DNA of 64,000 nt from an uncultured Cohaesibacter sp. (GTDB lineage: Bacteria; Pseudomonadota; Alphaproteobacteria; Rhizobiales; Cohaesibacteraceae). Location: assembly GCF_963676275.1 (NCBI RefSeq), contig NZ_OY781091.1, forward strand, positions 2,272,775 through 2,336,774. Reading direction: 5' to 3'. Positions 1 through 19,499 of this stretch are shown here, in pieces. Within the stretch, counting starts at the first letter, position 1. Each line of letters begins with the position of its first letter. Both the position numbers and the translations under genes were made by a program. The notes under the pieces are model-generated. The model searched no databases. It saw only the letters and a program-made list of their open reading frames with translations, and had not been told where the DNA came from.

Positions 1-1060
1 TAAGGCCCACAGCCTGATCCGCCATTTGCAAAGAGGCTGGAGCTTCCTGCGTGAAGAGCGAAACGAATTTCTCGATATCCTGCCCGCCTCTCAGCGCATG
101 AATGACGAGGCCTGGTATCAGGGCACATCGGATGCGATCTATCAGAATATCGACATCCTCGAAAGCTATGGCCCGAAATATATCGTGATCCTCGCTGGAG
201 ACCATATTTACAAGCAGGATTACGCCTTGATGGTGCGCCAGCATGTGGAGACCGGCGCCGATGTGACCGTCGGGTCCATCGAGGTTCCACTCGAAGAAGC
301 CAAGGCTTTTGGCGTCATGAAGGTGGACAAAAACGACCGCATTCTTGAATTTGTCGAGAAACCGGCCAACCCGCCTGCCATGCCGAATGATCCCGAACGT
401 GCGCTGGCATCGATGGGCATCTATGTTTTTGAGGCCAAGTTCCTCTATGACATCTTGCGCGAGGAGGCCTGCAATCCCGATACCCATCACGATTTCGGCA
501 AGGATATCATTCCCAAGCTGGTCAAGGGCGGCAAGGCGATCGCTCATCCTTTCAGTCGCTCCTGCATCAGATCCGGTCTGGAAACAAAGCCCTATTGGCG
601 CGATGTGGGCACCATTGACGCTTTCTGGGAAGCCAATATCGATCTGACGGACTTCATTCCGGAACTGGATATCTACGACAACGACTGGCCGATCTGGACC
701 CATCAGGAACTGACACCACCTGCCAAATTCATCCATGACGAAGAGGGCCGCCGTGGGCAGGCTGTTTCTTCCATGGTTTCGGGTGGCTGCATCATTTCGG
801 GGTCCTCGCTCAATCGATGCCTTCTGTTTACCGGCGTCAAGGCGCATTCCTTCTCCAAGATGAGCGGCGTTGTCGCGCTGCCCTATGCCGAGATCAACCG
901 CAAGGCACAGCTGAAGGATGTCGTCATCGACCGCGATGTGAAGATCCCGGCTGGCCTCGTTGTCGGCGAAGATCCCGAGTTGGACGCCAAGCGTTTCCGC
1001 CGCTCTGAAAAGGGCATTTGCCTGATAACCCAGTCCATGATCGACAAACTGGACCTGTAG
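1..1060 (+). CDS. glgC: Glucose-1-phosphate adenylyltransferase, 5' end outside window
   Basis: ADP-glucose pyrophosphorylase makes ADP-glucose from glucose-1-phosphate and ATP, the committed step of bacterial glycogen synthesis in the cytoplasm. The frame is open from base 2 and reads [13 protein letters not shown], a GlgC block that normally lies roughly 75-85 residues from the N-terminus, so the true start is upstream of the window. Visible family features are DILPASQR, the [12 protein letters not shown] sugar-nucleotide core, [13 protein letters not shown] and a C-terminal left-handed beta-helix region with allosteric function in the family. The TTG near base 26 is internal, not a start. 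The stop codon abuts the glgA ATG, which implies one transcript with glgA, glgX and malQ. Family assignment is secure; the missing N-terminus cannot be judged. Confidence 0.96.
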
Positions 1061-2494: not shown

Positions 2495-2524
2495 AATGTT
2501 TGTGCCCTTTAGGACCGATCATTG

Positions 2525-4624
2525 ATGAAATATAAGATATCCAACGGAACACCTTACAGACTTGGTGCCTTTTATGACGGGGAGGGCACCAACTTTGCTG
2601 TCTTTTCCGCCAATGCCAGTCAGATTGACCTCTGTCTCTTTTCCGCAGACGGAAAGAAGGAAATCGACCGGATATCTTTGCCAGAAAGGACCGGTCCCGT
2701 ATGGCATGGCTATATGCATGGCCTAAAGCCCGGAACGCTTTATGGCTATCGGGCCCATGGTATCTATGCGCCTGAGCAGGGACATCGTTTCAATTCCAAT
2801 AAATTGTTGTTGGACCCCTACACCCGCGAGATTTTCGGCAAATGGACCCCATCGGCCACCCTGTTCGGATATCAGAAGGGAGCCAGCGGTGGCGACTTGA
2901 CATTCGGTGCAGCCGATAGCGCGGCCTGTGTGCCCAAATCCGTCGTATCGGACCCTTCACTGAATGATTTCCTTCAGACCGCGGCACCCGCTCTGGATGG
3001 CAGAGATCTGATTTATGAAGCCCATGCCAAGGGCTTGACCAAGCTCCACCCGGATGTGCCGGAAAATCTGCGCGGCACCTATGAGGGCTTGGCCAGCGAT
3101 GCCATGATCGATCATCTGCTCTCCCTCAATGTGCGCGCCGTAGAGCTGATGCCGGTGCATCATTTCCTTGATGACGAGTTTCTGCTCGACAAGAATCTTG
3201 TCAATTACTGGGGCTACAATTCCATCGGCTTCTTTGCTCTGGAACCCAGATATCTCGGGCCGGACGGGATTATCGGTTTCCGTGCCATGGTGCAGAAGCT
3301 GAAGGCAGCGGGCATTCAGGTTTATCTCGATGTGGTCTTCAACCACACCGCCGAAGGGGATCAGAATGGCCCCACGCTCTGTTTCCGCGGGCTTGACAAT
3401 GCCGTCTATTATCGCCTGATCTCCGGCCAGCCGCGCTATTATGTCAATGATACCGGCTGCGGCAATACGGTGAATGTGTCACACCCCTATGTCTTGCGCC
3501 TTGTGCTCGATTCCTTGCGCTATTGGGTGCTCTGCATGGGGGTAGACGGTTTCCGCTTCGATCTGGCCACCACGGTGTGTCGTGAAGATTACGGCTTTGA
3601 CCTTTACGGCGGTTTTCTCGATGCCATCCGGCAGGATCCTATCCTGTCCACCGTGCGCCTGATTGCCGAGCCATGGGATATCGGCCCCGGCGGTTATCGC
3701 CTTGGCGGCTTCCCGCCCGAATTCTCCGAGTGGAATGACAGCTATCGCGATACAACGCGCAAATATTGGAAAGGCGATCCGCAAACGACGCCTGATCTTG
3801 CTTCCCGTCTTCTGGGCTCGGCTGACAAGTTCGACCGGGCAGGGCGGCGGGCATGGTCTTCGGTCAATTTCATCTCTGCCCATGACGGTTTCACCATCGC
3901 CGATATCACGCGCTATAATAATCGCCATAATCAGGCCAATGGCGAGAATAACATGGACGGCCATGGCGCCAATTACAGCGACAATTGCGGCGCCGAGGGA
4001 GAAACCAGAGATCCGGTCATCCGCGCCCGACGCGCCCGGCGGCAACGCAATTTTTTAGCCACCCTGTTTCTCAGTCAGGGCACACCGATGCTGCTGGCTG
4101 GCGATGAAATCGGCAACAGCCAGAAGGGCAACAACAACGCCTATTGTCAGGACAATGAAATTGGTTGGGTGAACTGGGACAAGGGGGACAAGGTTCTCAA
4201 GGATTTTGTCGCCTATCTCAGTCAGTTCAGGCGAGATCACAAGGCCTTGCGGCAGGACCGTTTTCTGCATGGCGCCAAGCGGCAGCAGGATGACATGCGC
4301 GATGTTGAATGGACCGATTTCGGCGGTTTCCCGCTGCAATGGCGCGATCCGGGCCTCTCCAGCTTCTGTCTTACCTTGAGATGCTCGGCCGAAGCTCCGT
4401 CCTATGAAAAAGACAATGACGTGGTCTTTGTTGTTTTCAATCGAAGCAATGTTGCAGCCAGCGTTGTTCTGCCATCCTGTCCGGATGGCTATCGCTGGGT
4501 CAGGGCTTTGGATACGTCTCAGCAAACTCAATATCCAAGCCTGGAAACAAGTCAGGAATCGACCGAAGTTTCCGGTTCCTCCATCGTAGCCCTGATCCTA
4601 GAAGCGGATAATGCAAAGCCATGA
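2525..4624 (+). CDS. glgX: Glycogen debranching enzyme (GH13)
   Basis: Hydrolyses alpha-1,6 branch points of limit dextrin to release maltodextrins. About 699 aa: an N-terminal CBM48-type beta domain, a GH13 barrel and a C-terminal beta domain. Catalytic signatures are GVDGFRFDLATTV (nucleophile Asp), LIAEPWDIG (acid/base Glu) and SAHDGFTIAD (stabilising Asp); DVVFNHTAEG is conserved region I. The start is either ATG at 2525 or a TTG at 2522; an AGGA lies 7-10 bases upstream of both and I prefer ATG. The 3' end overlaps malQ by four bases (ATGA), which supports coupled translation. GlgX acting with MalQ turns over stored glycogen. Confidence 0.95.
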   Translation: MKYKISNGTPYRLGAFYDGEGTNFAVFSANASQIDLCLFSADGKKEIDRISLPERTGPVWHGYMHGLKPGTLYGYRAHGIYAPEQGHRFNSNKLLLDPYTREIFGKWTPSATLFGYQKGASGGDLTFGAADSAACVPKSVVSDPSLNDFLQTAAPALDGRDLIYEAHAKGLTKLHPDVPENLRGTYEGLASDAMIDHLLSLNVRAVELMPVHHFLDDEFLLDKNLVNYWGYNSIGFFALEPRYLGPDGIIGFRAMVQKLKAAGIQVYLDVVFNHTAEGDQNGPTLCFRGLDNAVYYRLISGQPRYYVNDTGCGNTVNVSHPYVLRLVLDSLRYWVLCMGVDGFRFDLATTVCREDYGFDLYGGFLDAIRQDPILSTVRLIAEPWDIGPGGYRLGGFPPEFSEWNDSYRDTTRKYWKGDPQTTPDLASRLLGSADKFDRAGRRAWSSVNFISAHDGFTIADITRYNNRHNQANGENNMDGHGANYSDNCGAEGETRDPVIRARRARRQRNFLATLFLSQGTPMLLAGDEIGNSQKGNNNAYCQDNEIGWVNWDKGDKVLKDFVAYLSQFRRDHKALRQDRFLHGAKRQQDDMRDVEWTDFGGFPLQWRDPGLSSFCLTLRCSAEAPSYEKDNDVVFVVFNRSNVAASVVLPSCPDGYRWVRALDTSQQTQYPSLETSQESTEVSGSSIVALILEADNAKP

Positions 4625-6696
4625 ACCAAGACAAGCTGAATGCACTTGCCGGTTATTTCGGAATACATGCTTCCTACAATGATTTCGATGGACATCTGGT
4701 TCAAACTTCAGTGGAAACACAGCTGGCCTTTCTGCGGGCCAATGGCTTGCATCTGGATAGCGAGGCGATGCTGGACGAGGCCGTCCGGTTTTATATAAAT
4801 GCCGAACAGGATCGCTGGTTCCCTCATGAATTGATAACTGGCACCGGCTTTGATTATCAATGCAATTTCGGTCTTGGTGCCCGTTGGCACATCCTGCTGG
4901 ATGAAGACCTTTCTGCCGATATCAGGGACAGGGTGCCTGCCGATAGTCTGAGCGGCATTGCTGATACCCATATTTCCTTGCCACCGCTACCATCGGGGAT
5001 CCATGAACTGGTCTGCGAGGTTGGCGGGCGTGTTGAGAAGGTGACCCTGATCACCGCCCCCTTGCGTGCGCCATCCATAGAGCAACTGACCGGCAAAGGC
5101 AGGGTGTGGGGCATCAATGCGCCGCTCTATGGTTTCCGCTCAAGGCGCAACTCGGGTATCGGCGACTTCGAAGATCTGGCCCGTTTTGCCGAATATGTTC
5201 ACCAACTGGGCGGAAGCTTTGTCGGCATCAATCCTGTTCATGCACTGGGCTTTTCCGATCACTATGCCATGAGCCCCTATTCGCCAACCCACAGGGGCTT
5301 TATCAATACCCAGCATATTGCTCTGGATCAGTTTACCGGTCTTGGTGATCTGCCCCAGTTGCGATCAATTCTGCAGGCGGTGGAACCGCAATGGACCGAA
5401 TTGCGCAATTCCGAGCAGGTTGAATATCAGAGCCATCGGGTTTGCCAGAATGCCGCCTTGCGGGATATCTATAATCTGTTTCTGCAACATGCCGAACCTG
5501 AAGCTCTTGAGGCCCTGAGTGCCTTCAGGGCTGCCAAAGGGGCGTATCTGGAACGTTTTGCGCTCTATGAGGCCTTGTCAGACCATTTCGGCTCCCATTG
5601 GCATAGCTGGCCAGCGCCATATCGTGATCGTCATGACAAGGCGATTACCGAAGCCCGTGGGCGTTTTGCCAATCGCATCGACTTCCATATCTGGCTTCAA
5701 TGGATTGCCAGCGTGCAACTGGGCCAAACCCAGAAGCGCGCCAGCCGCGCCGGTGGACTTGGTCTCTATCTCGACCTTGCCGTTGGTGCACGCAGGGGCG
5801 GCGGCGAAAGCTGGTGTGAGCATGACAGCATCGCACAAGGCATCTCTCTGGGGGCTCCGCCAGACCAATTGGGGCCTGATGGCCAGAATTGGGGGCTGGT
5901 TGCATATGCCCCGAAAAAGCTCGCCGAAAACAAATACAAGTCCTTGCGCAACATTTACCGCTCGGCAATGGAATATGCTGGCGTTCTGCGCATTGATCAT
6001 GTGCTCGGCCTTAATCGCAGCTTCTGGATTCCGGATGGCGGAATTCCGGGGGCATATATCTCCCAGCCGCTGGATATTTTCCTTTCCATCCTGTCGATCG
6101 AGGCCAATGCGTCAAAAACGGCGGTCATCGGCGAAGATCTGGGCCTCGTGCCGGACGGTTTCCGCGATTCCGTACAGGCGCACGGCATCTATGGCTATTC
6201 TGTTCTGCAATATGAAAAATGGCCCGACGGTCGCTTCAAGCATCCCAATGAGCTGCGGGAATTCAGCCTCGCCAGCTTCAGTACCCACGACACACCGACC
6301 CTGAAGGGCTTCATTACCGGCTGCGACATCAAATGGCGCGATCAGATCCGGGGAAGCGAACAACCATCATTCGATGCTCTGGAAGCACGCAGGCGCGACG
6401 TGGAAGCATTGGCAACGCTGGATCCCGACATGAGCAAGCATGGGGATGTCAGCTTTGAGCATCTGTTTCCGACCATTCATGGGGCTCTTGCCAATTCGCA
6501 AGTGGCCATGCTCGCCGTGCAGCTGGATGATATCCTCGGGCAAGAGGAAGCCCAGAATCTGCCCGGCACCATCGACCAGCATCCCAACTGGCGCAGGAAA
6601 TGCGTTCTGCTGAATGAAGAGATGCCCGACGAACCGGCGTTTGGTCAAGTCGCACAGATGATGAAGGAAAGCGGCCGCGGTCTGGAAGAGGAATAA
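4621..6696 (+). CDS. malQ: 4-alpha-glucanotransferase (amylomaltase, GH77)
   Basis: Disproportionates maltodextrins by moving glucan chains between acceptors, recycling short dextrins released by GlgX. At 691 aa it is the long enterobacterial-type MalQ, with an N-terminal extension of about 150 residues before the barrel. Visible motifs are NSGIGDFEDLARF, VLRIDHVLGL (nucleophile Asp), VIGEDLGLVPDG (acid/base Glu) and STHDTPTLKG (third carboxylate). It is the last gene of the glycogen operon: its ATG overlaps the glgX stop and a strong terminator follows within 60 bases. Confidence 0.95.
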   Translation: MNQDKLNALAGYFGIHASYNDFDGHLVQTSVETQLAFLRANGLHLDSEAMLDEAVRFYINAEQDRWFPHELITGTGFDYQCNFGLGARWHILLDEDLSADIRDRVPADSLSGIADTHISLPPLPSGIHELVCEVGGRVEKVTLITAPLRAPSIEQLTGKGRVWGINAPLYGFRSRRNSGIGDFEDLARFAEYVHQLGGSFVGINPVHALGFSDHYAMSPYSPTHRGFINTQHIALDQFTGLGDLPQLRSILQAVEPQWTELRNSEQVEYQSHRVCQNAALRDIYNLFLQHAEPEALEALSAFRAAKGAYLERFALYEALSDHFGSHWHSWPAPYRDRHDKAITEARGRFANRIDFHIWLQWIASVQLGQTQKRASRAGGLGLYLDLAVGARRGGGESWCEHDSIAQGISLGAPPDQLGPDGQNWGLVAYAPKKLAENKYKSLRNIYRSAMEYAGVLRIDHVLGLNRSFWIPDGGIPGAYISQPLDIFLSILSIEANASKTAVIGEDLGLVPDGFRDSVQAHGIYGYSVLQYEKWPDGRFKHPNELREFSLASFSTHDTPTLKGFITGCDIKWRDQIRGSEQPSFDALEARRRDVEALATLDPDMSKHGDVSFEHLFPTIHGALANSQVAMLAVQLDDILGQEEAQNLPGTIDQHPNWRRKCVLLNEEMPDEPAFGQVAQMMKESGRGLEEE

Positions 6697-7245: not shown

Positions 7246-7273
7246 AAAAAAGCCAGCCTCGCGGGCTGGCTTA
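7246..7273 (-). terminator. Rho-independent terminator after the diflavin reductase
   Basis: Read on the minus strand, AGCCAGCC/GGCTGGCT arms (7251-7258 and 7264-7271) with a five-base loop are followed by a run of six T. It lies about 22 bases past the stop of the gene ending at 7295 and marks the end of the gltB-like/reductase operon. Confidence 0.85.
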
Positions 7274-7294: not shown

Positions 7295-9049
7295 TCAATA
7301 AACGTCGCGCACGTAACGCTTTTCCTTTTTCATCAGGTTGACATAATCCATCGCCCCATCCTCGCTGAGGCCTGCCTGATCGGAAATGACCTGATGAAGA
7401 GCGCGATCAACATCCTTGGCCATGCGCGAAGCATCGCCGCAGACATAGAAATGCCCACCTTCCTGAAGAGCGCCATAGAGTTCCTTGGCAAATTCCTTCA
7501 TCCGAGTTTGAACATAGATCTTCTCTGCCTGATCGCGAGAAAAGGCCAGATCAAGACGGTTCAAAACGCCATCCGCCTGCATTTGTGCCAATTCATCCTT
7601 ATAGATGAAATCGGTCTTTGCATGCTGATCACCGAAGAACAGCCAGTTGAAGCCTTTGGCTCCGATGGCCTGACGCTCCTGCAGGAAGGCACGGAATGGC
7701 GCAATGCCCGTTCCCGGTCCGACCATGATCATCGGCACATCGTTATTTTCCGGCACCCGGAAGCTCTTGTTTGGAGAAACGAAGACCTTGGCCGCTTCGC
7801 TGCCGACACGATCTGCAAGGAAGCAGGAGGCAACACCGCCATGCTTGCGGCCATGGCTCTCATAGCGCACCGAAGCAATGGTCAGATGTACGCTTTTCTC
7901 ATGCATCTTCGAGCTGGACGAAATCGAATAGGCGCGATGCTGCAAGGGCTTGAACAGGGCGATCAATTCCTCAACAGAAAATTTCGCCTTGGGATGAAGC
8001 CTTGCGATATCCAAGGCATCCTTTGACCAGAGATAGGCCTCCATGGCTTCCTTGTCGTTGAAATCGACAATATGCTGGAGATGCTCGTCATCGGTGCGCT
8101 CGGCTATCGCCTTGATAAAGTCGCTCGACGGGGTGGAAATTTCAAGTTGGCTGAAGAGCAGCTCTTGAAGAGACACGTCCTTGCCAGCCACGCTTTTGTC
8201 GCCATCAACGCCCATATAGCCAAGCCACTCGGCAACCAGCGCCGGATCATTGGTCGGAATGACATTGAGCGCGTCACCCGCCACATAGCTTGGCCCGTCG
8301 TTGGACAAATCAAACTCGTAATGACGAATTTCCTTGGCGGAGCCTTCGCCCGAGAGCAGATGGTTGACCGTGACTGGCGCTTCGAACGGATTCTTGCGGG
8401 TCCATTTGGATTTCGCCGGTTTGGCGGCTGCAGCATCACTTGGCGAGATTGGACCGCCTGCATCATCGGGTTTGTGCTTGGCCAGTTCCTCGCGCGCTGA
8501 CGACATCCAGCCATCCGCGCTTTCCTCGAAATCGACATCGCAATCGACGCGCCCGGTCAGGCGCTTGGCGCCCAGTTGCTCGAAGCGCAGATCGAACTGC
8601 TTGCCAGCCTCGCAGAAGCCGTCATAGGCGGTGTCACCCAGCGCCAGTACCGAGAAATGCATATGTTCGAGGCGAGGGGCCTCCGATGATTTGAGCGCAT
8701 CCCAGAACAGCTGGGCATTGTCCGGCATTTCGCCTTCGCCATAGGTGGAGGTGATGAGGAAGACATAATTCATCTCGACCAGACTGTCGACTTCCACGTC
8801 ATCAAGGGAAGCCACGCTGGCATTGACACCTTCAGCGCGCAGGGTTGCTGCGAAATCTTCAGCAAGGCCTTCGGAATTGCCCGTCTGCGTGCCGTAGAGA
8901 ATATTGGCCGTGAGCGTGGATTTGGATTCAGCAGTCGCGGATTTCTTGCCAACGAGCATCTGGGTGTGCAAGCCGGCATAGAATCCGGCCAGCCAGGATT
9001 TCTGGTCTTCTGAGAATGGGGCGTCAGCAGGAAGGAAAGGTATGGTCAT
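7295..9049 (-). CDS. Diflavin (FMN/FAD) NADPH reductase, CysJ / sulfite-reductase-alpha type
   Basis: Transfers electrons from NADPH through FAD to FMN and on to a partner protein. About 584 aa from ATG 9049; a TTG 18 bases earlier is in frame. Order of domains: N-terminal segment, flavodoxin domain (YGTQTGNSEGLAEDF near residue 50; TSTYGEGEMPDN), FAD-binding domain (RAYSISSS), then the NADP-binding module (MVGPGTGIAPFRAFLQER, YVCGDASRMAKDVDRAL) ending with the CysJ-like RYVRDVY. It lies 57 bases downstream of the 1831-aa GltB-like gene, in the same direction, and a terminator follows. No sulfite reductase hemoprotein (CysI) gene is beside it, so its partner may be the GltB-like protein. That link is inference; the enzyme class is secure. 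Confidence 0.9.
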   Translation of the reverse strand: MTIPFLPADAPFSEDQKSWLAGFYAGLHTQMLVGKKSATAESKSTLTANILYGTQTGNSEGLAEDFAATLRAEGVNASVASLDDVEVDSLVEMNYVFLITSTYGEGEMPDNAQLFWDALKSSEAPRLEHMHFSVLALGDTAYDGFCEAGKQFDLRFEQLGAKRLTGRVDCDVDFEESADGWMSSAREELAKHKPDDAGGPISPSDAAAAKPAKSKWTRKNPFEAPVTVNHLLSGEGSAKEIRHYEFDLSNDGPSYVAGDALNVIPTNDPALVAEWLGYMGVDGDKSVAGKDVSLQELLFSQLEISTPSSDFIKAIAERTDDEHLQHIVDFNDKEAMEAYLWSKDALDIARLHPKAKFSVEELIALFKPLQHRAYSISSSSKMHEKSVHLTIASVRYESHGRKHGGVASCFLADRVGSEAAKVFVSPNKSFRVPENNDVPMIMVGPGTGIAPFRAFLQERQAIGAKGFNWLFFGDQHAKTDFIYKDELAQMQADGVLNRLDLAFSRDQAEKIYVQTRMKEFAKELYGALQEGGHFYVCGDASRMAKDVDRALHQVISDQAGLSEDGAMDYVNLMKKEKRYVRDVY

Positions 9050-9106
9050 CTCTCTTAGATCCGTCAATAGAAATTGATATCAAAAGGACGTTTTGCAAGC
9101 AGGTGC

Positions 9107-12100
9107 TCATGGCACCTGCTTGACCAGTTCCTGACTGGATGTCGCAGCAAACAAGCTTTCGAAATCCGGTAACTCGCCCATTGCCTTGCGGTTCTGCCGA
9201 TCCTGAAGCAGGATCCAGCCATATGTGCCGATAGAGTCCATCAGGCGCACATTGCGGTTTGACAAGGCAGTCTTGTAGTCTTTCATGCGCTTGTCCGAGA
9301 TCAGCACCGCCAATTCCATGTCGGAATAATCGGTCAGCGCCTGACGGGCTATGGCAGACAGCTTGGTCATCAGAGTGAAATCCTCGGTAAGGATCAGCTT
9401 GCGCACGCCGCTATTGAGCGTCTCTGCCGAAATTTCCTCGCCGCGATAGCGACCCTTGACGATCTGCTGAGCCATGTTGATCACGGTGAAATTATTGATC
9501 AACTCATACATCAGCTTGGTGTCGGTCTCACCCTGTTTGGGGATGATGCCGCCAGCAATGACCTTGCCGTCGCGATAGGCCAGTTTGAACTTGCGCAACT
9601 GATAGGAAACCAGCGCATTGGCCAGTTCTTCGGTCAGCTCCTTGCGCGGGTTGGCCTTCAGAATGGCTTCGTAATTCTGATAGGTTTCCAGCGCCAGAGG
9701 CGTTGCGAACTTGAAGTTGACGATTTCCGTGTCGAAATTGTCGAGCAGGAACTTGCCTTTCTTCGAGCCGGTGAATTTGACGTGATGACGCAGCAGACGC
9801 ATTACGGCAAGCTTGTGCAGTTTGGCGCGATCATTGTCGCCATCGAGCCGATGCAGCTTGACCGAGTCATGGCTGTAAAGCGCTTCGAGCTGATTATATG
9901 GATCATACTGATAGGCGACGCCACCGGACATACCGTTGCAGAAGCCCTTGCCGAAGACACCAAGATTCATGATGGCTCCGTTGGTCATATATTCACCGCA
10001 GAAGTCGCCGACGCCTTCGACAACCGCCGTGGCCCCGGAGTTGCGGACACCGAAGCGGTCGCCCGCGCCACCTTCAACAAACAGCGAAGATCCGGACGCA
10101 CCAAACAGGGCAAAGTTACCGATCAGCACGTTTTCCTCGGTTCCACCACCGGGCGAATGAACCGCGATATAGCCGCCGGACGCGCCTTTGCCGACGCCGT
10201 CATTGCAGGTGCCGACATGATGGAACACCATGCCCGAGTTACAGAAGGCCGCATAGGACTGACCCGCAGAACCATGGGTATGGATCTCCAGCGTTTCCGG
10301 CTTGAGCATGTTACGGCCGCGGTCATCGGTATAGACCATCGGCATGGATTTCACATGCTTCTCTGAAATCTCGTGCTGCAGCATCCGTTCGATATCGATG
10401 GAAAGCTGCCCGCCAACCGTCTTGTTGCGGTTGTCGAGTTTCTTCTCGACGACCAGCGTTGCTCGCTTGTGATGACGCTGAACGGCCTTGTTCTTGAATT
10501 CCTTCAAGAGCATGTCGTCGATTTCATAATGGGCTTCCAGATAGACCGGCTCCTTGATGTGAACTTCCGGCACCACTCTGAGCATGTTGCGCAGATCCAT
10601 CTGGCCGATCGCGCTGGGATGCTTGATCAGGTGCAGATAGTCTGAACGGCCACGGGCCTCGCGCATGCTCTTGAAACCAAGATTAGCGAGAATTTCGCGG
10701 CATTCATGGGCAATATTCATCAGATACTGACCAAGCGCACGCGGGTCGCCATCAAAGACTTCCGAGTTGGTCGTAAGACCGGCTGGGCATTTGATGTTGC
10801 AGTTCTTGGCCATGACGCATTTGAGCATCATCAGCGCAGTGGTACCAAATTCGAAGCTGTCGCCACCCAGCAGACAGGATTTGACAACGTCCGTTGCCGT
10901 CTGGTGAGCGCCGGAGCATCTGAGAATAACCTTGTCGCGCAGACCGTTGGCGCAGAGCGCCTGATGGACTTCCGCAAGGCCGATCTCGGCCGCACGGCCG
11001 GTATTCTTCAGCGAGGTTACGGCAGCCGCACCGGTACCGCCCGAGTTGCCCGCAATATTGATGACATCAGCGCCAGCCTTGGCTACACCGACGGCAATCG
11101 TGCCGATGCCTTCAGAGGAAACCAGCTTGACGATGACTCGAACACGCGCAGCCTTGGCGTCGTGGATCAGCTGTGCCAGATCCTCGATTGAGTAGGTGTC
11201 ATGGTGCGGCGGAGGGGAAATCAGCTCGACCCCCGGCGTGCCACCACGGGCGGCCGCAATCTCTACCGTTACTTTCTTGCCAGGCAACTGGCCACCTTCA
11301 CCGGGCTTGGCACCCTGAGCGATCTTGATTTCGATTTCTTCCAGAGTCGGGTCGGCCAGATAGCCGGTCCAGACACCGAAGCGACCGGAAGCGAGCTGCT
11401 TGATGCTCGAAGAACGGATCGTGCCATAGCGTGAATAATGTTCGCCACCTTCACCTGAGTTTGAGAAGGCCCCGACCATATTCGCACCATGCGCCACGGC
11501 TTCGTGAGCGGGGGCGACCAACGCACCATGAGACATGGCACCGGAAGCGAGCATCGCGGTGATTTCATGGGCAGGCTGAACCTTGTTCAGTGCCAGCTTG
11601 CCGTTTGGCCGCTTGTGGTTGGCCAGATAGAAATGCGCCAGCCCCTTGGCAGTGATGTGAATATTTTCACCCTCGGTTTCCATCGTAAGCAGTTCGTCGC
11701 CAAACTGGCTCTTGAGGGCAACTGACAGCGCAATCAGCCTTTCATGGCTAAACTTGCTGGCAAAGAAGACCGTGAAACTGTCATCCTTGTTGTGATGGAC
11801 ACGCAGGCCGCGAACAAAGAAATTGTTGTTGCCAACCAGATCGTGCCGGAACAGTTCGGTGCGGAATTCCTCCGCCGTCGCTGCCCAGCTGATATCCGTC
11901 GGGAAGCACAGAACGTCGCGTAGGGCCGCAGGGCGCGCTTCGCGTTCCTTGGCCAGTTCAAGCGCAAATTTGCGATAGTTCGGCGTGATCCGGAAGGAGT
12001 CGATCTCTTCCGGCGTGCGCCGTCCAAAGCTGGTGTTGCGATAGGAATCCGAGCCCTTGCCATAGGCATCCTTGAGCCTGTCGACGGGCAGCAGACGCAG

Positions 12101-14602
12101 ATCATTGACGTCGCCGTCACCCTTTTCAGGGGCAGACAGGTCCGACTGGATCGGCTCTTCGGTCATCTCCACGAAACCGCGCACAGCGAGCGTGCCATAG
12201 GTATGACCAGCCCCTTCAGAGCGCTCCTTGAACAGGCCCAGCAGCGGGATGTCATCTTCGTTTTTGACTTCGCAGGCTCTCTTGTGCCAGTTGACCACGC
12301 TCTTTGCGACAGAGGCAAAGTCAACACCACCAACCGTATTCTTCATGTTGGGGAAATAGCGCTTGAGAATAGGCTCATCGGTATCAAGGAAGTTCGGTTC
12401 AAAGAACTCGCCACCAATATAGCTCTCTGCCGTGCAGAGGCCGACCTTGCCCATGGTTTTCATCAGCGACTTGTTGGCCGCAGAGATGAACTGCGCGATA
12501 TTCTTCTTCGCTTCGTCCCTGTCACCCTTGGCAAATTCCATCGCGCGCGCTTCAACCGAAATCGGCATCACCGCAGAGGCACCAAAGCCCAGCGCCGTCG
12601 CGATCTGGTGGGCAGATGCGATCTGACCACTTTCAGCCACCAGCGAAACGCGGAACCGAAGTCCCTGTTCGATGAGGCGCTGGTTGGCTGCCGAGATCAT
12701 CAGCGGCAGAGGAATGGCCGCCATTTTCTCGTCGACCATCGCGTCGGAAAGAATGACGATTCCGCCCTTGTCGCGAGCTGCCTTTTCAACCTGATCACAA
12801 ACGCCGTCCACGGCAGCAATCAGATCGTCCTGAGCCTTCTTGCGATCGGCTTTGTGGTCCACTTCGAAGAACATTTCCACTTCGGTGATGGCCACATCGC
12901 TCTGGGCACGAATGGCCGCCAGATCATCAGGGGAGAGCACCGGCGTCTGCACGACCAACTGCTTGGTTTCGCCCTTGTTGAAGTGAGGCTTTGCGCCCAG
13001 TGCAACGCGCAGGGTCATGCCGTCGGCTTCACGCAAGCTGTCGAGTGGCGGGTTGGTCACCTGCGCAAAACGCTGCGAGAAATATTTCGACATGCCGCCT
13101 TCCTGATCGGTCAGCGAGTTGATGGCCACGCCATAACCCATGGCGGAAATCTTCTCCTTGCCCGTCTGCATCATCGGATCAAGCAGGAATTTGAAACTCT
13201 CCTGATTGAGGCCATAGGCAACGAAGCGCTGAACGTCGGTAAAGCTGCTGGCAACTTCCGTGACACCGTCGGCGCGCGGCAGATCATCGAGATTCTTGCG
13301 TGCGCTTTCCAACAGCGAGCGATAGTCCCGCTTGGAGGCGAGCATTTTGAGCGCCTGATCGGAGGTGTATGACTTCTTGGTTTCATGGTCAAAATAGAGC
13401 ATGCCACCGGCTTCAATGCGTCCACGGCGCAAGATGCTGGAGGGTTCGAAATCAACCTGACCGGCTTCCGACATGACGCAGAGATATTCATCGGTTTCAA
13501 CGGAGCGAAGCGGACGCAGACCAAGACGGTCAAGACGCGCACCGACCACGGTACCATTGCCGAAAATAAGCGCGGCGGGGCCGTCATTCTTCTCTTCATA
13601 AAGAGAGAAATATTCCAGCATCACCCGAACATCTTCGGGGAAGCGCGTATCATTTTCCCATGCCGGAGGCATCATGGCGACAACGGCGGTGATCAGATCA
13701 AGATCATCCTCAATCAGCCGACGCTCGAGCGTCTGGTCCAGACGGGCAGAGTCAGACTGTCCCGGAGGCGAATAGATCTGCTGATTTTTCATCTGCGCGA
13801 TCGTTGCTTCCGAGAGACGGTTTTTCTTGTCGGTGTTCAACTCGCCGTTATGCGCCATCAAGCGGAATGGTTGCGCCATGGAAGGCTGCGGCTCGGTGTT
13901 GGTCGAGAAACGGGTATGGAAGAACAGCGAATGAATTTTATGGTCTTCATCCGTCAGGTCATAGAAATAGGGGATGACCTCATTGGAGTTCAAACGTCCC
14001 TTGTAAACCTGGGTATGGGCAGACATCGAAAGAGGATAAAGCCCCTTCAGCGACGGCTCCAGATAGGCAACGGATTCGATATCCATCAGCGCGTCATGGA
14101 TCTTGCGATCAAATGCCTTGCCGTCCATCGACTTGTCCTTGACAAAGACAACCTGATGCACAGACAGCATATATTTCAGCGCCGCCGGACGAATGACGGA
14201 ATTGTTGACCGGAGCATCGCGCACGAGAACAATGCGCAGGCCGTTCTTCTCAAGGCTTTCCTTGATCAGTCTGTCGGCCGCGTCCCAGTTCTTTTTCAGC
14301 TCTGGCAGGAAGAAGTTGCCAACGCCGAACTCGCCCAGTTCCAGAGTGGGGATGCCGGTGATTTTTCGGAAGAAAGAAAGGGACAAATCCACGCAGACAC
14401 CGGCGCCATCGCCGACGCCTTCCGCGCTCATGCCGCCGCGATGGGGAACCGTGCAAAGTGCTTCGTTCGCCTTCAGCAACACGTCATGGGTTTGAACACC
14501 GGATTTGTAAGTCAAGAAGCCAACACCGCAGCTGCTTTTTTCAAAGCTATGGTCATACAGGCCGAATTGATTCTGAGACTGTTCCAAACCGCTAATCCTC
14601 AC
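9107..14602 (-). CDS. Long glutamate-synthase large-subunit-like protein (1831 aa)
   Basis: GltB makes two glutamates from glutamine, 2-oxoglutarate and reductant. Domains here: class II glutamine amidotransferase with candidate nucleophile Cys25 (SSCGVGFL) after a short propeptide, plus MSAEGVGDGAGV; a central domain; an extra segment around residues 905-1005; the FMN synthase domain (NIAGNSGGTGAAAV near 1180); cysteines 1262, 1268 and 1272; a GXGXG beta-helix (HGSAGQSYAAF to GMSGGVAYQYDP, about 1440-1570); then a tail well beyond the usual end. Canonical GltB is about 1500 aa, so this is some 300 longer. The cysteine spacing is C-x5-C-x3-C rather than C-x5-C-x4-C. The start is GTG 14602, overlapping the upstream small ORF as GTGA, or possibly TTG 14587 with GAGGA eight bases before it. 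No gltD is adjacent; a diflavin reductase is. Confidence 0.85.
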   Translation of the reverse strand: MRISGLEQSQNQFGLYDHSFEKSSCGVGFLTYKSGVQTHDVLLKANEALCTVPHRGGMSAEGVGDGAGVCVDLSLSFFRKITGIPTLELGEFGVGNFFLPELKKNWDAADRLIKESLEKNGLRIVLVRDAPVNNSVIRPAALKYMLSVHQVVFVKDKSMDGKAFDRKIHDALMDIESVAYLEPSLKGLYPLSMSAHTQVYKGRLNSNEVIPYFYDLTDEDHKIHSLFFHTRFSTNTEPQPSMAQPFRLMAHNGELNTDKKNRLSEATIAQMKNQQIYSPPGQSDSARLDQTLERRLIEDDLDLITAVVAMMPPAWENDTRFPEDVRVMLEYFSLYEEKNDGPAALIFGNGTVVGARLDRLGLRPLRSVETDEYLCVMSEAGQVDFEPSSILRRGRIEAGGMLYFDHETKKSYTSDQALKMLASKRDYRSLLESARKNLDDLPRADGVTEVASSFTDVQRFVAYGLNQESFKFLLDPMMQTGKEKISAMGYGVAINSLTDQEGGMSKYFSQRFAQVTNPPLDSLREADGMTLRVALGAKPHFNKGETKQLVVQTPVLSPDDLAAIRAQSDVAITEVEMFFEVDHKADRKKAQDDLIAAVDGVCDQVEKAARDKGGIVILSDAMVDEKMAAIPLPLMISAANQRLIEQGLRFRVSLVAESGQIASAHQIATALGFGASAVMPISVEARAMEFAKGDRDEAKKNIAQFISAANKSLMKTMGKVGLCTAESYIGGEFFEPNFLDTDEPILKRYFPNMKNTVGGVDFASVAKSVVNWHKRACEVKNEDDIPLLGLFKERSEGAGHTYGTLAVRGFVEMTEEPIQSDLSAPEKGDGDVNDLRLLPVDRLKDAYGKGSDSYRNTSFGRRTPEEIDSFRITPNYRKFALELAKEREARPAALRDVLCFPTDISWAATAEEFRTELFRHDLVGNNNFFVRGLRVHHNKDDSFTVFFASKFSHERLIALSVALKSQFGDELLTMETEGENIHITAKGLAHFYLANHKRPNGKLALNKVQPAHEITAMLASGAMSHGALVAPAHEAVAHGANMVGAFSNSGEGGEHYSRYGTIRSSSIKQLASGRFGVWTGYLADPTLEEIEIKIAQGAKPGEGGQLPGKKVTVEIAAARGGTPGVELISPPPHHDTYSIEDLAQLIHDAKAARVRVIVKLVSSEGIGTIAVGVAKAGADVINIAGNSGGTGAAAVTSLKNTGRAAEIGLAEVHQALCANGLRDKVILRCSGAHQTATDVVKSCLLGGDSFEFGTTALMMLKCVMAKNCNIKCPAGLTTNSEVFDGDPRALGQYLMNIAHECREILANLGFKSMREARGRSDYLHLIKHPSAIGQMDLRNMLRVVPEVHIKEPVYLEAHYEIDDMLLKEFKNKAVQRHHKRATLVVEKKLDNRNKTVGGQLSIDIERMLQHEISEKHVKSMPMVYTDDRGRNMLKPETLEIHTHGSAGQSYAAFCNSGMVFHHVGTCNDGVGKGASGGYIAVHSPGGGTEENVLIGNFALFGASGSSLFVEGGAGDRFGVRNSGATAVVEGVGDFCGEYMTNGAIMNLGVFGKGFCNGMSGGVAYQYDPYNQLEALYSHDSVKLHRLDGDNDRAKLHKLAVMRLLRHHVKFTGSKKGKFLLDNFDTEIVNFKFATPLALETYQNYEAILKANPRKELTEELANALVSYQLRKFKLAYRDGKVIAGGIIPKQGETDTKLMYELINNFTVINMAQQIVKGRYRGEEISAETLNSGVRKLILTEDFTLMTKLSAIARQALTDYSDMELAVLISDKRMKDYKTALSNRNVRLMDSIGTYGWILLQDRQNRKAMGELPDFESLFAATSSQELVKQVP

Positions 14603-14763
14603 TTTTTAAGGGCGCGACCTCCATGTTCGGCCCAGAAAATGGACCAAAATGCGAGATCGTCGTCTTTATCCGAAACCGGACCATTGCTGTGATCCGTAAT
14701 GACGACGAGCATACCGCTCGACGGCTCCGTTTTGCATTGCACCTTGAAGGGTGCCTGCGCCAT
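14599..14763 (-). CDS. Hypothetical 54-aa protein overlapping the gltB-like start
   Basis: An ATG at 14763 opens a 54-codon frame starting MAQAPFKVQCKTEP and ending GGRALKK. Its TGA overlaps the gltB-like GTG by four bases (GTGA), a typical translational-coupling junction. Codon choice resembles the neighbours. No domain is recognised; it is acidic in the middle (SDKDDD) with two Trp, and no signal peptide is visible. Upstream there is no strong ribosome site, and the frame can be extended to 14892 with less gene-like sequence. It could be a leader ORF that tunes expression of the large protein, or a genuine small partner. Confidence 0.45.
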   Translation of the reverse strand: MAQAPFKVQCKTEPSSGMLVVITDHSNGPVSDKDDDLAFWSIFWAEHGGRALKK

Positions 14764-15160
14764 TGAACTATCGCGTAATAAAATATTGTAAGACCAGGTC
14801 CATACAATCGATGATAGCTCAACTCTTGCAAAAAGAGGCGCAAAAAACCCGAACATCCGTCCTTCCCAAGAAAACAGATGCCGAGATTTCATGTCACAGA
14901 ACTAAGGCTGTGCGTAAATGGTATGGGGGAATGCGTCAAGCTCATAAAGGGTGAAAACGGACGATTTTTTCGTTTTGGTGCGATTTTTCCGTAGATTCTG
15001 CGCAAATGTTTCTTCGCCCGCGTGCATTAAATACAAACGTTCCAAAACCCTAAATATCTGACGAAGCGCGATAAAGCGTGATCATCTGCGACCATAGGCC
15101 TCATCAGAAATTGATGAGGCCGCAAGGTTAACAACATGTTGTCAAGCATCCTGTCCGTCG
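14764..15160. other. Gene-free region upstream of the gltB-like operon
   Basis: About 400 bases without a convincing gene. It should hold the promoter of the minus-strand operon; a TACAAT hexamer read on the minus strand near 14785 is a possible -10 box, but no good -35 is evident. A perfect stem-loop lies at 15097-15121. Confidence 0.5.
15097..15121. repeat. Perfect 10-bp inverted repeat, terminator-like stem-loop
   Basis: Arms GGCCTCATCA (15097-15106) and TGATGAGGCC (15112-15121) are separated by five bases. It lies 40 bases beyond the stop of the minus-strand gene ending at 15161, so it may protect or end that transcript. There is no T-run on either strand, so it is not a classical intrinsic terminator. 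Confidence 0.5.
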
Positions 15161-15766: not shown

Positions 15767-16819
15767 TCAGACAGCCCAGGCCCGATCAAACGAAAAGCGG
15801 ACCGACATGCCCAATGTCACGGGCTGATTGCTATAGGCGATAATGTCGGTCCCATCGCTCATCTCCAGTCCGAGGCGATAGCGCTCTCCCAGATAGGTTG
15901 AGGATATCACGCGTGCGGGCAATCCGTTTTCCTGATCCAGCGTCACATTCTCTGGCCGAATGCAAAGTCCCACAGGATGGGCCTCGGGCAGGGCTGCAAT
16001 ATGCTGGCTCTGGCGTGTTCTGAATTCCTGACCGTGGATCACGACATCGCGCCATTCGCCCTCGCTCCGGCCTTCAAGATAACCGGTCAGAATGGAACTT
16101 TGGCCAATGAAACGGGCCACCTGTTCGCTCTTGGGCTGATGATAGAGATTTTGTGGCTTGTCGATCTGCGCCACTTCACCATTGAACATGACCGCGATCC
16201 TGTCCGCCATGGCCATGGCTTCGGCCTGATCATGGGTGACATAAACCATCGTCGCGCCGGACCGTTTGTGAAACTCGACAAATGTGCGCTGCATCACTTC
16301 GCGCAAATGGGCGTCCAGATTGGCTAGAGGCTCATCGAGCAACACGGCATCAGGCTGCATGACCAGACAGCGGGCCAGGGCCACCCGCTGCCTTTGCCCG
16401 CCAGAAAGGGTGGCGGGTTCCGCATCAGCAAAGTCAATGAGGGAAACCGTTTCAAGGGCATTGAAAAGAATAGCGTCGATCTTTTCTTCCGGCAATTTTC
16501 TGATCTTGAGCGGATAGGCGACATTCTCCGCAACGGTCATGTTTGGCCAAAGGGCATAGGATTGGAAAACGATGCCCATATTGCGCTTTTCCGGGGCGAC
16601 ATGATGGATGGCATCCGACATCAGCTCTCCACCTTTATGGATGGTTCCGCAATCAGGTCGCTCGAAACCGGCGGTCAGGCGCAACATCGTGGTCTTGCCG
16701 CAGCCCGAAGGTCCGAGCAGAGCAACCAGCTCTCCATCTTCGATTTCAAGCGAGATGGATTTCAGCACATCGACCTGATCAAAGCTCTTGCAAATATTGT
16801 TATAGATCAGCTTCGCCAC
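15767..16819 (-). CDS. ABC importer ATPase, iron(III)/phosphonate type (FbpC-like)
   Basis: Energises uptake through the adjacent fused permease. 350 aa. Walker A is GPSGCGKTTMLRL, Q-loop VFQSYALWPN, signature LSGGQRQRVALARC, Walker B AVLLDEPLANLD, and switch His YVTHDQAEAMAMAD. The last 110 residues form a TOBE-type regulatory domain. This is the PotA/FbpC/CysA branch of importer ATPases. Its start overlaps the permease gene by 13 bases, so the three genes from 19499 downwards form one operon with order binding protein, permease, ATPase. The substrate cannot be read from the ATPase. Confidence 0.9.
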   Translation of the reverse strand: MAKLIYNNICKSFDQVDVLKSISLEIEDGELVALLGPSGCGKTTMLRLTAGFERPDCGTIHKGGELMSDAIHHVAPEKRNMGIVFQSYALWPNMTVAENVAYPLKIRKLPEEKIDAILFNALETVSLIDFADAEPATLSGGQRQRVALARCLVMQPDAVLLDEPLANLDAHLREVMQRTFVEFHKRSGATMVYVTHDQAEAMAMADRIAVMFNGEVAQIDKPQNLYHQPKSEQVARFIGQSSILTGYLEGRSEGEWRDVVIHGQEFRTRQSQHIAALPEAHPVGLCIRPENVTLDQENGLPARVISSTYLGERYRLGLEMSDGTDIIAYSNQPVTLGMSVRFSFDRAWAV

Positions 16820-18528
16820 GGAATGACTCCTTTGGGCAAATGGTTGCCCATGATTTCAATAATGCTCATCAACCCGATAACAACCAACACCACCAGAACC
16901 GCCACGGCCGAGGCGAGGACGCTCTCGCCGCTGTCATCGAGATTGAAAATGACAACACCTAGCGTTTCATTGCCTGAAGACCAGAGCAGGGCGGATACGG
17001 TCAGTTCATTGAAGGCTGTCAGAAAGACAAGCAGCGCACCGGCCGCCGCCGAAGGCGCTACCGCAGGCAGGAGAATGTCTGTCAGGCGGCGAAAGGGAGA
17101 AGCTCCACAGGCCTGAGCGGCTTCTTCAAGATTGGGTTCCATCTGCTGGAATGAACTGGATACGGGTTTGAGTGCAATGACAAAGAAGCGCGCCAGATAG
17201 GCGATGAATATGATCGCCAGCGTGCCATAGAGGCTGACATCAAGAATGGGGATGCGCTGGAATGTCAGGATGCAGGCAATCGCCAGAACAATGCCCGGCA
17301 TCGCATAGGGAATCTCGATCAGAATATCGAGGGTGCGGGATATCCAGCAAGACTGTTTCATCATGCCATAGGCAAGCGGTACGGCGAGCAAAAACAGCGT
17401 CCCGGCGGCACCAACAGAGAGCCCGAAACTGTTTACGAAAGCACGCATGGTGGCGGCCTGCCTGAAAAGCACTTCCCGATAGGCTTCAAGGCTGGCTGTG
17501 CTCCAGCTCAGCACCATGCCAAAGGCCGGAACCAGAGACGCAGAGATCAGCGCAATCAGGGGCACGACGAGAACGAAAAACAGTACGGCCCACATGCAAA
17601 TCTCTACCAGCAGCCGGTAACGCCCCAAAGAAATATCAAGAGGCCTGCCAACGATGCCATGCAAGCGATATTCACGCCCCTTCACCAGATGATGATGCAA
17701 AATCACGCCGCCTGCCGCGATCAGGCCAATCAATATGGCCAGAACGGCAACCTCGGCCAGCACCGAGGGGCCAAAGCTGGAAAGTTTCGAATAGATGAGC
17801 GTTGGCAGCATCTGAATATTGGCCGGAATACCCAACATCGCCGATATGCCGAAATTGCCAATTGCCGTAACAAACGTCATTGCGATGCCTGCAATCAGGG
17901 CAGGGCTGGTAATGGGCAGAATAATGTCCCGCCAGACCGCAAGCCCTCCGGCACCTGCCAGCCGGGCTGCCTCGACCTGCTCCCGCGGCACTTGCCTCAG
18001 CGCCGCACGCAGGGTGAGGAAGATCAGCGAAGCATGCTGAATGCCGAGCAATAACGCAATGCCGCCGACCGAATAGAGCGGCTGGGGGGAGCCCAATTTT
18101 GGCGCTATGCCGAGCATTTTGAGCAACGCACTGGTCGGGCCGAACATCTGCAACCAGGAAAGCGCCGTAATCTGCGGCGGAATCATCATCGGCAGCATGA
18201 AGCAGAAGACCAGAGCAGCCTTGGCGCGAATGTCCGTCAAGGCGACCAGAAAGGCAAAGGTTCCGCCGAACAGCAGGGAAATCAAAGTGCCCGATGCCGA
18301 GATGGAAACCGAATTCCACGTCGCCCCCCATGTTTGAGGTTCGGAAAGAATCCGCGTCAGATGGCTGGTGGAGAAGGCAGAATCCTGCAACAGCCCCTGC
18401 ATCATCAGACGCAAGACGGGCAGCAGACACAAAATGACGATGATCGGCGTGAGAATAGCAAGAAAAAGGCCAGACCGACCATCTGGCCGGCCTGACTTAC
18501 CACCATTCACCATGGTGATGAATGTCAT
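16807..18528 (-). CDS. ABC importer permease with two fused permease halves (FbpB-like)
   Basis: 573 aa, about twice a single permease, with two sets of six or so membrane helices, as in FbpB-type ferric and 2-aminoethylphosphonate importers. Coupling (EAA-like) loops are visible as EQVEAARLAGAGGLAVWRDI in the first half and EEAAQACGASPFRRLTDI in the second. The ATG at 18528 overlaps the stop of the binding-protein gene by one base (TAATG). A second ATG at 18513 is possible. Since both halves are in one chain, no second permease gene is needed. Confidence 0.9.
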   Translation of the reverse strand: MTFITMVNGGKSGRPDGRSGLFLAILTPIIVILCLLPVLRLMMQGLLQDSAFSTSHLTRILSEPQTWGATWNSVSISASGTLISLLFGGTFAFLVALTDIRAKAALVFCFMLPMMIPPQITALSWLQMFGPTSALLKMLGIAPKLGSPQPLYSVGGIALLLGIQHASLIFLTLRAALRQVPREQVEAARLAGAGGLAVWRDIILPITSPALIAGIAMTFVTAIGNFGISAMLGIPANIQMLPTLIYSKLSSFGPSVLAEVAVLAILIGLIAAGGVILHHHLVKGREYRLHGIVGRPLDISLGRYRLLVEICMWAVLFFVLVVPLIALISASLVPAFGMVLSWSTASLEAYREVLFRQAATMRAFVNSFGLSVGAAGTLFLLAVPLAYGMMKQSCWISRTLDILIEIPYAMPGIVLAIACILTFQRIPILDVSLYGTLAIIFIAYLARFFVIALKPVSSSFQQMEPNLEEAAQACGASPFRRLTDILLPAVAPSAAAGALLVFLTAFNELTVSALLWSSGNETLGVVIFNLDDSGESVLASAVAVLVVLVVIGLMSIIEIMGNHLPKGVIPWRS

Positions 18529-19499
18529 TATTGCGCCCCGAACATCTCGGCAAAGCGGCTCTTGTTTTCCTCGGCATTGGCAAGGGCCGAAGCCGGGTCA
18601 AAGGACATCAACTTGATCTTGCTGCGCTCCGGGAACCCTTCCGGAACTGCCGCGCCGTTTTTGGCCGGAATGTAGCCCTGAGACAGCACCAGATCCTGCC
18701 CCTTGTCCGACAGCAGAAAATCGACAAATTTATGTGCCGCATCGACATTCTTCGCTGTTTTCAGAATGGCCACCGGCTCAGTAACATAGGAAACGCCTTC
18801 CTCGGGGAAGACAAACTCCACCGGCGACCCCTTGGCCTTGCTGCGAATGGCCAGATAATCGACCACCACGCCATAAGGCTTCTCGCCCGAAGCAACAGCC
18901 TTGAAGGTGCCGCCATTGCCCCCTTGCGCCCGTGCTTCATTCTTTGCCAGAGCCTGATAATAATCCCAGCCCAATGCCTCATCGCCGGTCAGCGTTGCAA
19001 GATGGATCAGCGCAGCGCCAGAATAGAGCGGCGACGGCATCGCGATCATGCCCTTCATGTCTGGCTTTGCCAGATCTTGCCAACTGGTCGGCTTGAATTC
19101 AGCACCGGTGTTATAAACGATACCGGTCGTGATCAGCTTGGTGGAATAGTAATATCCTTCGCCATCATAAAGCGCCGGATCATAGGCGCTGGCAGCATCC
19201 GACTTGTAGGGCTGAAGCTGATCGCTCTGTTTGAGCCCTTCAAGGGTGACCATGTCAGCGATCAGCAGCAGATCAGGGCGCACATCACCTGCGGCGATTT
19301 CTGCCTGAAGCTTGGCCATGACCTTCGTTGTGCCATCGCGCACCCAGGTTACCTTCACATCCGGATATTCTGCCATAAAGGCGTCAACGGTCTGTTGAGC
19401 GTCGGCGTTGGGCTGACTGGTATAGAGCACCAGCTCTTCAGCCAGTGCAGGCGTTGCAGCAAAAGCCGCCAGTATGGAGGAGAGAATGAATTTACGCAT
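18528..19499 (-). CDS. ABC importer periplasmic binding protein (FbpA-like)
   Basis: 323 aa with signal peptide RKFILSSILAAFAATPALA. The mature start EELVLYTSQPNADAQQTVDAF is typical of the class II iron(III)/putrescine/phosphonate binding-protein fold. GYYYSTKLITTGIVYNT lies where FbpA proteins place iron-liganding tyrosines, but the same region occurs in paralogues that bind organic phosphates or phosphonates, so the ligand is open. It is first in the operon with permease and ATPase. The 291 bases between it and phaC hold its promoter region; I saw no Fur-like box I would defend. Confidence 0.85.
   Translation of the reverse strand: MRKFILSSILAAFAATPALAEELVLYTSQPNADAQQTVDAFMAEYPDVKVTWVRDGTTKVMAKLQAEIAAGDVRPDLLLIADMVTLEGLKQSDQLQPYKSDAASAYDPALYDGEGYYYSTKLITTGIVYNTGAEFKPTSWQDLAKPDMKGMIAMPSPLYSGAALIHLATLTGDEALGWDYYQALAKNEARAQGGNGGTFKAVASGEKPYGVVVDYLAIRSKAKGSPVEFVFPEEGVSYVTEPVAILKTAKNVDAAHKFVDFLLSDKGQDLVLSQGYIPAKNGAAVPEGFPERSKIKLMSFDPASALANAEENKSRFAEMFGAQ

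What the first reader, a model, noticed from the sequence alone, without database searches (positions are those of the whole stretch)
7295..14602. Long GltB-like protein paired with a diflavin reductase instead of GltD
Seen: an 1831-aa protein with amidotransferase, FMN synthase and GXGXG domains, about 300 aa longer than canonical GltB, with an extra segment near residues 905-1005 and a long C-terminal tail. It is followed after 57 bases by a CysJ-type FMN/FAD reductase and a terminator. No gltD and no cysI are adjacent. Known: bacterial NADPH-GOGAT takes electrons via GltD; plastid-type GOGAT uses ferredoxin. Inference: this could be a distinct glutamate synthase (or amidotransferase-coupled amination enzyme) fed by a diflavin reductase, a redox pairing not standard for GOGAT.
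Basis: partly seen in the sequence, partly recalled or inferred. Interest (0 to 1): 0.75.

Follow-up and report, generated by a model that had tools for sequence, protein, structure and literature searches.

The report
Glutamate synthase with a diflavin reductase
Some bacteria appear to make glutamate with an enlarged version of a central nitrogen-assimilating enzyme that draws its electrons from a flavin reductase, currently labelled as a sulfite reductase part, instead of from its usual iron-sulfur partner.

Summary
In detail: an 1831-aa GltB-like protein and, 57 bases downstream, a CysJ-type diflavin reductase and a terminator-like hairpin. The pair is fixed. In about 90 distinct genomes or records with this long GltB the reductase gene is directly downstream in all; one more could not be judged. 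Both proteins form their own clades, apart from canonical GltB and from CysI- or NirA-linked reductases. In 297 genomes of the order, reductases over 600 bits occur in 21 of the 22 long-form genomes, always beside the long form, and in none of the other 275.

Canonical GltD was not found in 18 of the 22 long-form genomes (five genera) but was in 262 of the other 275; where it is missing, the long form is the only full-length GltB. The glutaminase cysteine and four residues recalled as the 2-oxoglutarate site are invariant. Most likely this is a third kind of electron supply for glutamate synthase: NADPH to FAD to FMN to GltB, without the iron-sulfur protein GltD. Product, electron path and Fe-S cluster (cysteine spacing one residue shorter) are inferred. 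Many rhizobia keep canonical GltD as well, so a different product is not excluded.

The parts
9107..14602 (-). long GltB-like protein (1831 aa): class II glutamine amidotransferase, central, FMN synthase and GXGXG domains plus insert and tail
14528..14530 (-). catalytic Cys25 of the amidotransferase (residue 1 after removal of a 24-residue leader, by analogy)
   Evidence: invariant in 60 of 60 aligned rows (59 long, one canonical)
11183..11308 (-). K1099, Q1105, R1119, E1140: counterparts of K972, Q978, R992, E1013 of Synechocystis Fd-GOGAT, recalled as its 2-oxoglutarate site; residue types checked on the alignment
   Evidence: invariant in 60 of 60 rows and in the 27 rows of A3, divergent members included
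10787..10819 (-). C1262, C1268, C1272: Fe-S ligand cysteines with spacing C-x5-C-x3-C instead of C-x5-C-x4-C
   Evidence: 58 of 58 full-length long forms; 13 of 13 further long ORFs read in the right frame, one of them from a genome already counted
11600..11896 (-). inserted alpha/beta domain, residues about 903-1001, absent from canonical GltB; no Pfam, PDB-sequence or fold match
9110..9685 (-). helical C-terminal tail, residues about 1640-1831, hallmark of the long form
7295..9049 (-). diflavin (FMN/FAD/NADPH) reductase, 584 aa from the ATG; the listed ORF runs to 9067
7250..7272 (-). intrinsic-terminator-like hairpin behind the two genes

Best explanation
The two genes encode one enzyme, a glutamate synthase of a third kind. 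Shown: the pair is fixed, its parts form their own clades, and it is present where GltBD is missing in several genera. Inferred mechanism: the amidotransferase domain (Cys25) splits glutamine; ammonia passes to the synthase barrel where it meets 2-oxoglutarate; the imine is reduced by the FMN of the large protein. Electrons come from NADPH through FAD and FMN of the diflavin reductase, which docks in place of GltD or ferredoxin and delivers single electrons to the Fe-S cluster (cysteine spacing altered) and so to the synthase FMN. The clade-specific insert and helical tail are the best candidates for docking or assembly surfaces. A plausible advantage is iron economy: the two [4Fe-4S] clusters of GltD are not needed.
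For: Reductase directly downstream in 19 of 19, 64 of 64, 13 of 14 with the 14th cut by its contig end, and 3 of 3 annotated plasmid-collection records. In 297 genomes of the order, reductases over 600 bits to P0002 occur in 21, all beside the long form, none in the 275 genomes without it. GltB-linked reductases are one clade, 99/95, apart from 7 CysI-linked, one NirA-linked and E. coli CysJ; the long GltB is one clade, 100/100, against 12 canonical rows. GltD (E 1e-100) not found in 18 of 22 long-form genomes versus 13 of 275 others (Fisher p 4e-17, or 8e-8 with the window's genus counted once). In 23 of 23 GltD-less long-form genomes (18 of the order, 5) the long form is the only full-length GltB. 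Cys25 and K/Q/R/E invariant in 60 of 60 rows. In L132 the pair lies directly downstream of gltB-gltD.
Against: 30 of 35 non-Cohaesibacter long-form genomes also hold canonical GltD (35 of the 64 loci were tested), so a separate role is possible there. The FMN-phosphate loop (DGGLKTGRD-type to SGAHQT) and the Fe-S cysteine spacing differ. The large protein misses the GltB equivalog cut-off (1008 against 1047 bits). The window genome also has a glutamate dehydrogenase-like protein (PF00208 over cut-off; below the NCBIfam cut-offs), so GOGAT need not be its only glutamate source. No biochemical data, no model of the complex.
Confidence: 0.8

Rival explanations
1. The pair is a functional unit, but the product is not glutamate: a GltB-derived, glutamine-dependent reductive aminase acting on another 2-oxoacid.
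For: Coexistence with canonical GltD in 30 of 35 genomes and in 4 of 22 of the order; altered FMN-phosphate and Fe-S loops; long branch to canonical GltB, 41-44% identity of its synthase domain to P0001.
Against: Residues recalled as the 2-OG site are invariant; GltD not found in five long-form genera, with the long form the only full-length GltB left.
Confidence: 0.13
2. The reductase is an ordinary CysJ that serves a sulfite reductase encoded elsewhere; its place beside the long GltB is incidental.
For: An NCBI model names it sulfite reductase subunit alpha (PRK06214, 442 bits over a cut-off of 432), and the genome holds a sulfite/nitrite-reductase-like protein beside a frame that I read by eye as CysH. 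That this protein needs no diflavin partner was not tested.
Against: Adjacency in every judgeable case, co-occurrence in 21 of 22 genomes, separate clade from CysI-linked reductases. The genome's sulfite-reductase-like protein scores 107 bits against a CysI cut-off of 757 and is 21% identical to E. coli CysI.
Confidence: 0.04
3. The long GltB takes electrons from ferredoxin or another carrier; the reductase only recycles that carrier.
For: A GltB-type enzyme without GltD is otherwise known as ferredoxin-dependent (PMC8097209, passages).
Against: The stretch of about 19 residues that Fd-GOGAT (1llw) has between its two aligned pieces, recalled as the ferredoxin loop, is absent, and the region is even shorter than in NADPH-type GltB; the reductase carries its own FMN domain.
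Confidence: 0.1

Closest known systems
NADPH-glutamate synthase GltBD (Azospirillum brasilense, PDB 6s6s/2vdc/1ea0; B. subtilis 7mfm; E. coli)
   Same: Four domains of GltB, catalytic Cys, 2-OG residues, three Fe-S cysteines, NADPH as presumed donor
   Different: GltD replaced by a diflavin reductase; insert of about 100 aa and tail of about 190 aa; Fe-S cysteine spacing x5-x3 instead of x5-x4; altered FMN-phosphate loop
Ferredoxin-dependent glutamate synthase (Synechocystis, PDB 1llw/1ofd/1ofe)
   Same: GltB-type subunit working without GltD
   Different: Long form lacks the ferredoxin loop and has its own NADPH-linked reductase gene
CysJ, sulfite reductase flavoprotein (E. coli and CysI-linked relatives in the order)
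   Same: Domain order and cofactor motifs; about 39% identity to E. coli CysJ
   Different: Separate clade; partner gene is GltB-like, not CysI
NirA-associated diflavin reductase (same genome, L115)
   Same: An assimilatory enzyme of the ferredoxin-dependent type beside its own diflavin reductase
   Different: 39% identity, outside the GltB-linked clade, different partner

Membership tests
glutamate synthase (GOGAT) large subunit | GATase_2, central, FMN synthase and GXGXG domains in one chain | tested here: met
glutamate synthase (GOGAT) large subunit | catalytic N-terminal Cys and 2-oxoglutarate residues | tested here: met
   60 of 60 rows; the role of the four 2-OG residues is recalled
glutamate synthase (GOGAT) large subunit | three Fe-S cysteines spaced C-x5-C-x4-C | tested here: not met
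   all three cysteines present, but spacing x5-x3 in 58 of 58
glutamate synthase (GOGAT) large subunit | forms glutamate from glutamine and 2-oxoglutarate | not testable with these tools
   needs an assay
NADPH-GltBD | GltD partner encoded beside gltB | tested here: not met
   no GltD match in 64 loci; in the window genome none of three PF14691 proteins passes TIGR01317 or TIGR01318
NADPH-GltBD | NCBIfam equivalog cut-off for GltB (NF008730) | tested here: not met
   1008 bits against 1047
Fd-GOGAT | ferredoxin loop in the FMN domain (recalled) | tested here: not met
CysJ | FMN, FAD and NADPH domains | tested here: met
CysJ | CysI partner encoded beside it; TIGR01931 cut-off | tested here: not met
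   no CysI in 64 loci (query: the window genome's own CysI-like protein); 613 against 668 bits

The most novel reading that the evidence does not exclude
A third class of glutamate synthase, diflavin-dependent and iron-sparing, found patchily in Alphaproteobacteria, Methylobacillus, other genomes of the phylum and an actinobacterial record, that has taken over from GltBD in several lineages and passes electrons from a flavodoxin-like FMN domain straight to GltB.
Probability: 0.7. Interest if true: 0.8.

Novelty: new variant of a known kind. Interest (0 to 1): 0.73.

Why it matters
Glutamate synthase is a main entry of assimilated nitrogen into metabolism. The review passages read here describe two kinds of electron supply: GltD with NADPH, and ferredoxin. 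A third, with a CysJ-like reductase, would change the annotation of both genes, explain how genera without GltD could run the GS-GOGAT cycle, and give a two-component system for testing how a flavin-only donor feeds the Fe-S/FMN core.

Tried and rejected
Rejected: the reductase as a plain CysJ (separate clade, no CysI beside it). Rejected: a GltD elsewhere in the window genome (three PF14691 proteins: one passes the NfnL/GltA-type model TIGR01316, the other two score best with fused-type models; none passes TIGR01317 or TIGR01318). Led nowhere: Pfam, PDB-sequence and fold searches for insert and tail; weak hits such as phosphopantetheine adenylyltransferase E 0.22 and AcrIF14 E 0.6 are taken as chance. 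The AlphaFold model of residues 790-1831 was middling (mean pLDDT 74, under 50 in several stretches of the FMN domain), so nothing is claimed from it about docking. Literature: ten searches listed no paper on this pairing; the library lacks most subscription papers. Of all listed papers only PMC8097209 was opened, by passages. The distance comparison gave no number because some rows did not overlap; one search dropped 3 of 73 rows (L042, L073, L078) and gave r 0.95, expected for a co-inherited pair and not used as independent evidence. In one search the ORF picked for L125 was an antisense frame, so L125 is left out of the motif count; its reductase match is counted.

It showed an E. coli CysI match beside 9 of 9 second-tier reductases (I had read five by eye; two tree labels, L160 and L162, had been assumed) and the TGA at codon 5 in three relatives. 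In the 13 divergent long ORFs the pattern used for the methionine near the Fe-S cluster was not found in 5, so its invariance is claimed only for the 60-row alignment.

Full report
What is there. On the minus strand an 1831-aa GltB-like gene (9107-14602) is followed by a diflavin reductase gene, 57 bases on if the ATG at 9049 is its start, and a terminator-like hairpin. Domains are those of GltB and of CysJ. Compared with solved GltB chains the protein has an insert of about 100 residues before the FMN domain and a tail of about 190 residues after the GXGXG domain. The tail is conserved, 84% mean column identity in 14 close rows and 68% in 28 wider rows, and has no Pfam match.

Where the window comes from. 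The genome is one contig of 5.03 Mb.

The pair is fixed. All 18 genomes of the genus that were searched, own included, and G019 of the same family carry the long form, each with the reductase next to it (19 of 19). A scan of named genomes with the tail alone gave 64 loci, from Cohaesibacter, Pseudovibrio, a Rhodobacteraceae isolate, Methylobacillus, Hyphomicrobium, Agrobacterium/Rhizobium, Shinella, Ancylobacter, Azorhizobium, Methylopila and others. The reductase is downstream in 64 of 64, with gaps of -4 to 75 bases in 62 and of 143 and 427 in two, and no GltD or CysI match (E 1e-8) lies in these loci. Six of the 64 have a broken or cut large ORF. Three plasmid-collection records show the same order and name the genes glutamate synthase-related protein and sulfite reductase (flavoprotein) subunit alpha; one is from Tsukamurella (Actinomycetota). 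Removing repeats by equal contig length (7, 2) leaves 19 + 57 + 11 + 3 = 90 distinct genomes or records; this subtraction was done by hand.

How common. Tail matches occur in 22 of 297 genomes of the order, 11 of them of the window's genus, and in 6 of 398 of the phylum, own included. All 28 match rows lie in open frames of 1716-1891 aa.

Exclusive partnership. In the same 297 genomes P0002 finds 21 reductases over 600 bits (lowest 630), all next to a long form; the next best match has 465 bits and 45% identity. The 22nd long-form genome is G307, which has only a weaker reductase, in two pieces on another contig. Nine second-tier reductase loci were fetched (L158-L166) and all nine have an E. 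coli CysI relative (46-51% identity) directly after the reductase. A tree of 42 reductases puts the 33 GltB-linked ones in one clade, 99/95, apart from seven CysI-linked ones, E. coli CysJ and the NirA-linked copy of this genome; three outgroup rows have long branches, and two linked rows are cut at their 3' end. In a tree of the synthase domain the 27 long forms are one clade, 100/100, against 12 canonical rows. Neither tree holds cyanobacterial or archaeal enzymes, and neither is rooted.

GltD is missing where the pair is. Canonical GltD (TIGR01317, E up to 1e-100) is in 266 of the 297 genomes. Cross-reading the lists: long form without GltD 18, long form with GltD 4, GltD only 262, neither 13; Fisher p 4e-17, or 8e-8 with the window's genus counted once. 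GltD is missing in five of seven long-form genera (g1, g53, g59, g24, g61). Sampled members without the long form keep GltD in g24 (G040) and g61 (for example G117), and G018 in the window's own family has gltB-gltD side by side. Two of the 18 genomes are under 90% complete (G225, G307). Of 35 long-form genomes reached from 35 of the 64 named loci, 5 lack GltD over the cut-off: two Pseudovibrio, Rhodobacteraceae NBU2976 and two Methylobacillus. In all 23 GltD-less genomes the only full-length GltB is the long form; two have an extra short GltB-domain protein. Against this, 30 of the 35 keep GltD, so the two systems often coexist.

Active sites. [quoted passage not shown] PMC8097209, passages). 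The four residues are also invariant in the 27 rows of A3, which include divergent members; the methionine was not confirmed in five divergent members. The function of the four 2-OG residues is recalled; their residue types were checked. Deviations: the Fe-S cysteines are spaced x5-x3 in 58 of 58, x5-x4 in G018; the DGGLKTGRD-type loop reads SGAHQT. The extra stretch of 1llw, recalled as the ferredoxin loop, is absent. FMN, FAD and NADPH motifs of the reductase are conserved in more than 95% of 73 rows.

The rest of the genome. Own genome: one full-length GltB, three GltD-like oxidoreductases none of which is canonical GltD, one sulfite/nitrite-reductase-like protein by a frame that I read as CysH, one NirA with its own diflavin reductase, and a glutamate dehydrogenase-like protein plus a weak second match in a 1624-aa frame. 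Whether the sulfite reductase needs a diflavin reductase was not tested.

Conclusion. Shown: a fixed two-gene unit, its two proteins in clades of their own, present where GltD is absent in several lineages. Inferred: it makes glutamate, with electrons running NADPH-FAD-FMN-GltB. The iron-saving advantage is my inference, with one weak pointer: siderophore uptake genes about 2 kb behind the pair in Ketogulonicigenium.

Noticed in passing
L115 3635-7175 (own genome, C1 3203634-3207174): A NirA-type nitrite reductase is directly followed by a second diflavin reductase, 39% identical to P0002: the same logic of an assimilatory enzyme of ferredoxin-dependent type with its own diflavin partner.
   Followed up: partly
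   Followed up: partly
window 26-6696: Glycogen-metabolism-like genes on the plus strand: nucleotidyl transferase (GlgC-like), starch/glycogen synthase, isoamylase-like, 4-alpha-glucanotransferase.
   Followed up: no
window 14599-14892 (-): An ORF of 97 aa overlaps the GTG start of the long GltB by four bases, as in translational coupling; not tested for conservation.
   Followed up: no
L169 (NZ_LR134452.1): The Tsukamurella record called plasmid 10 carries oligoribonuclease and other housekeeping-looking genes, so it may be a piece of chromosome.
   Followed up: no
window 15767-19499 (-) and 19791-21677 (-): ABC transporter set (ATPase, permease, solute-binding protein) upstream of the pair, and a PhaC-type polyhydroxyalkanoate synthase.
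   Followed up: no
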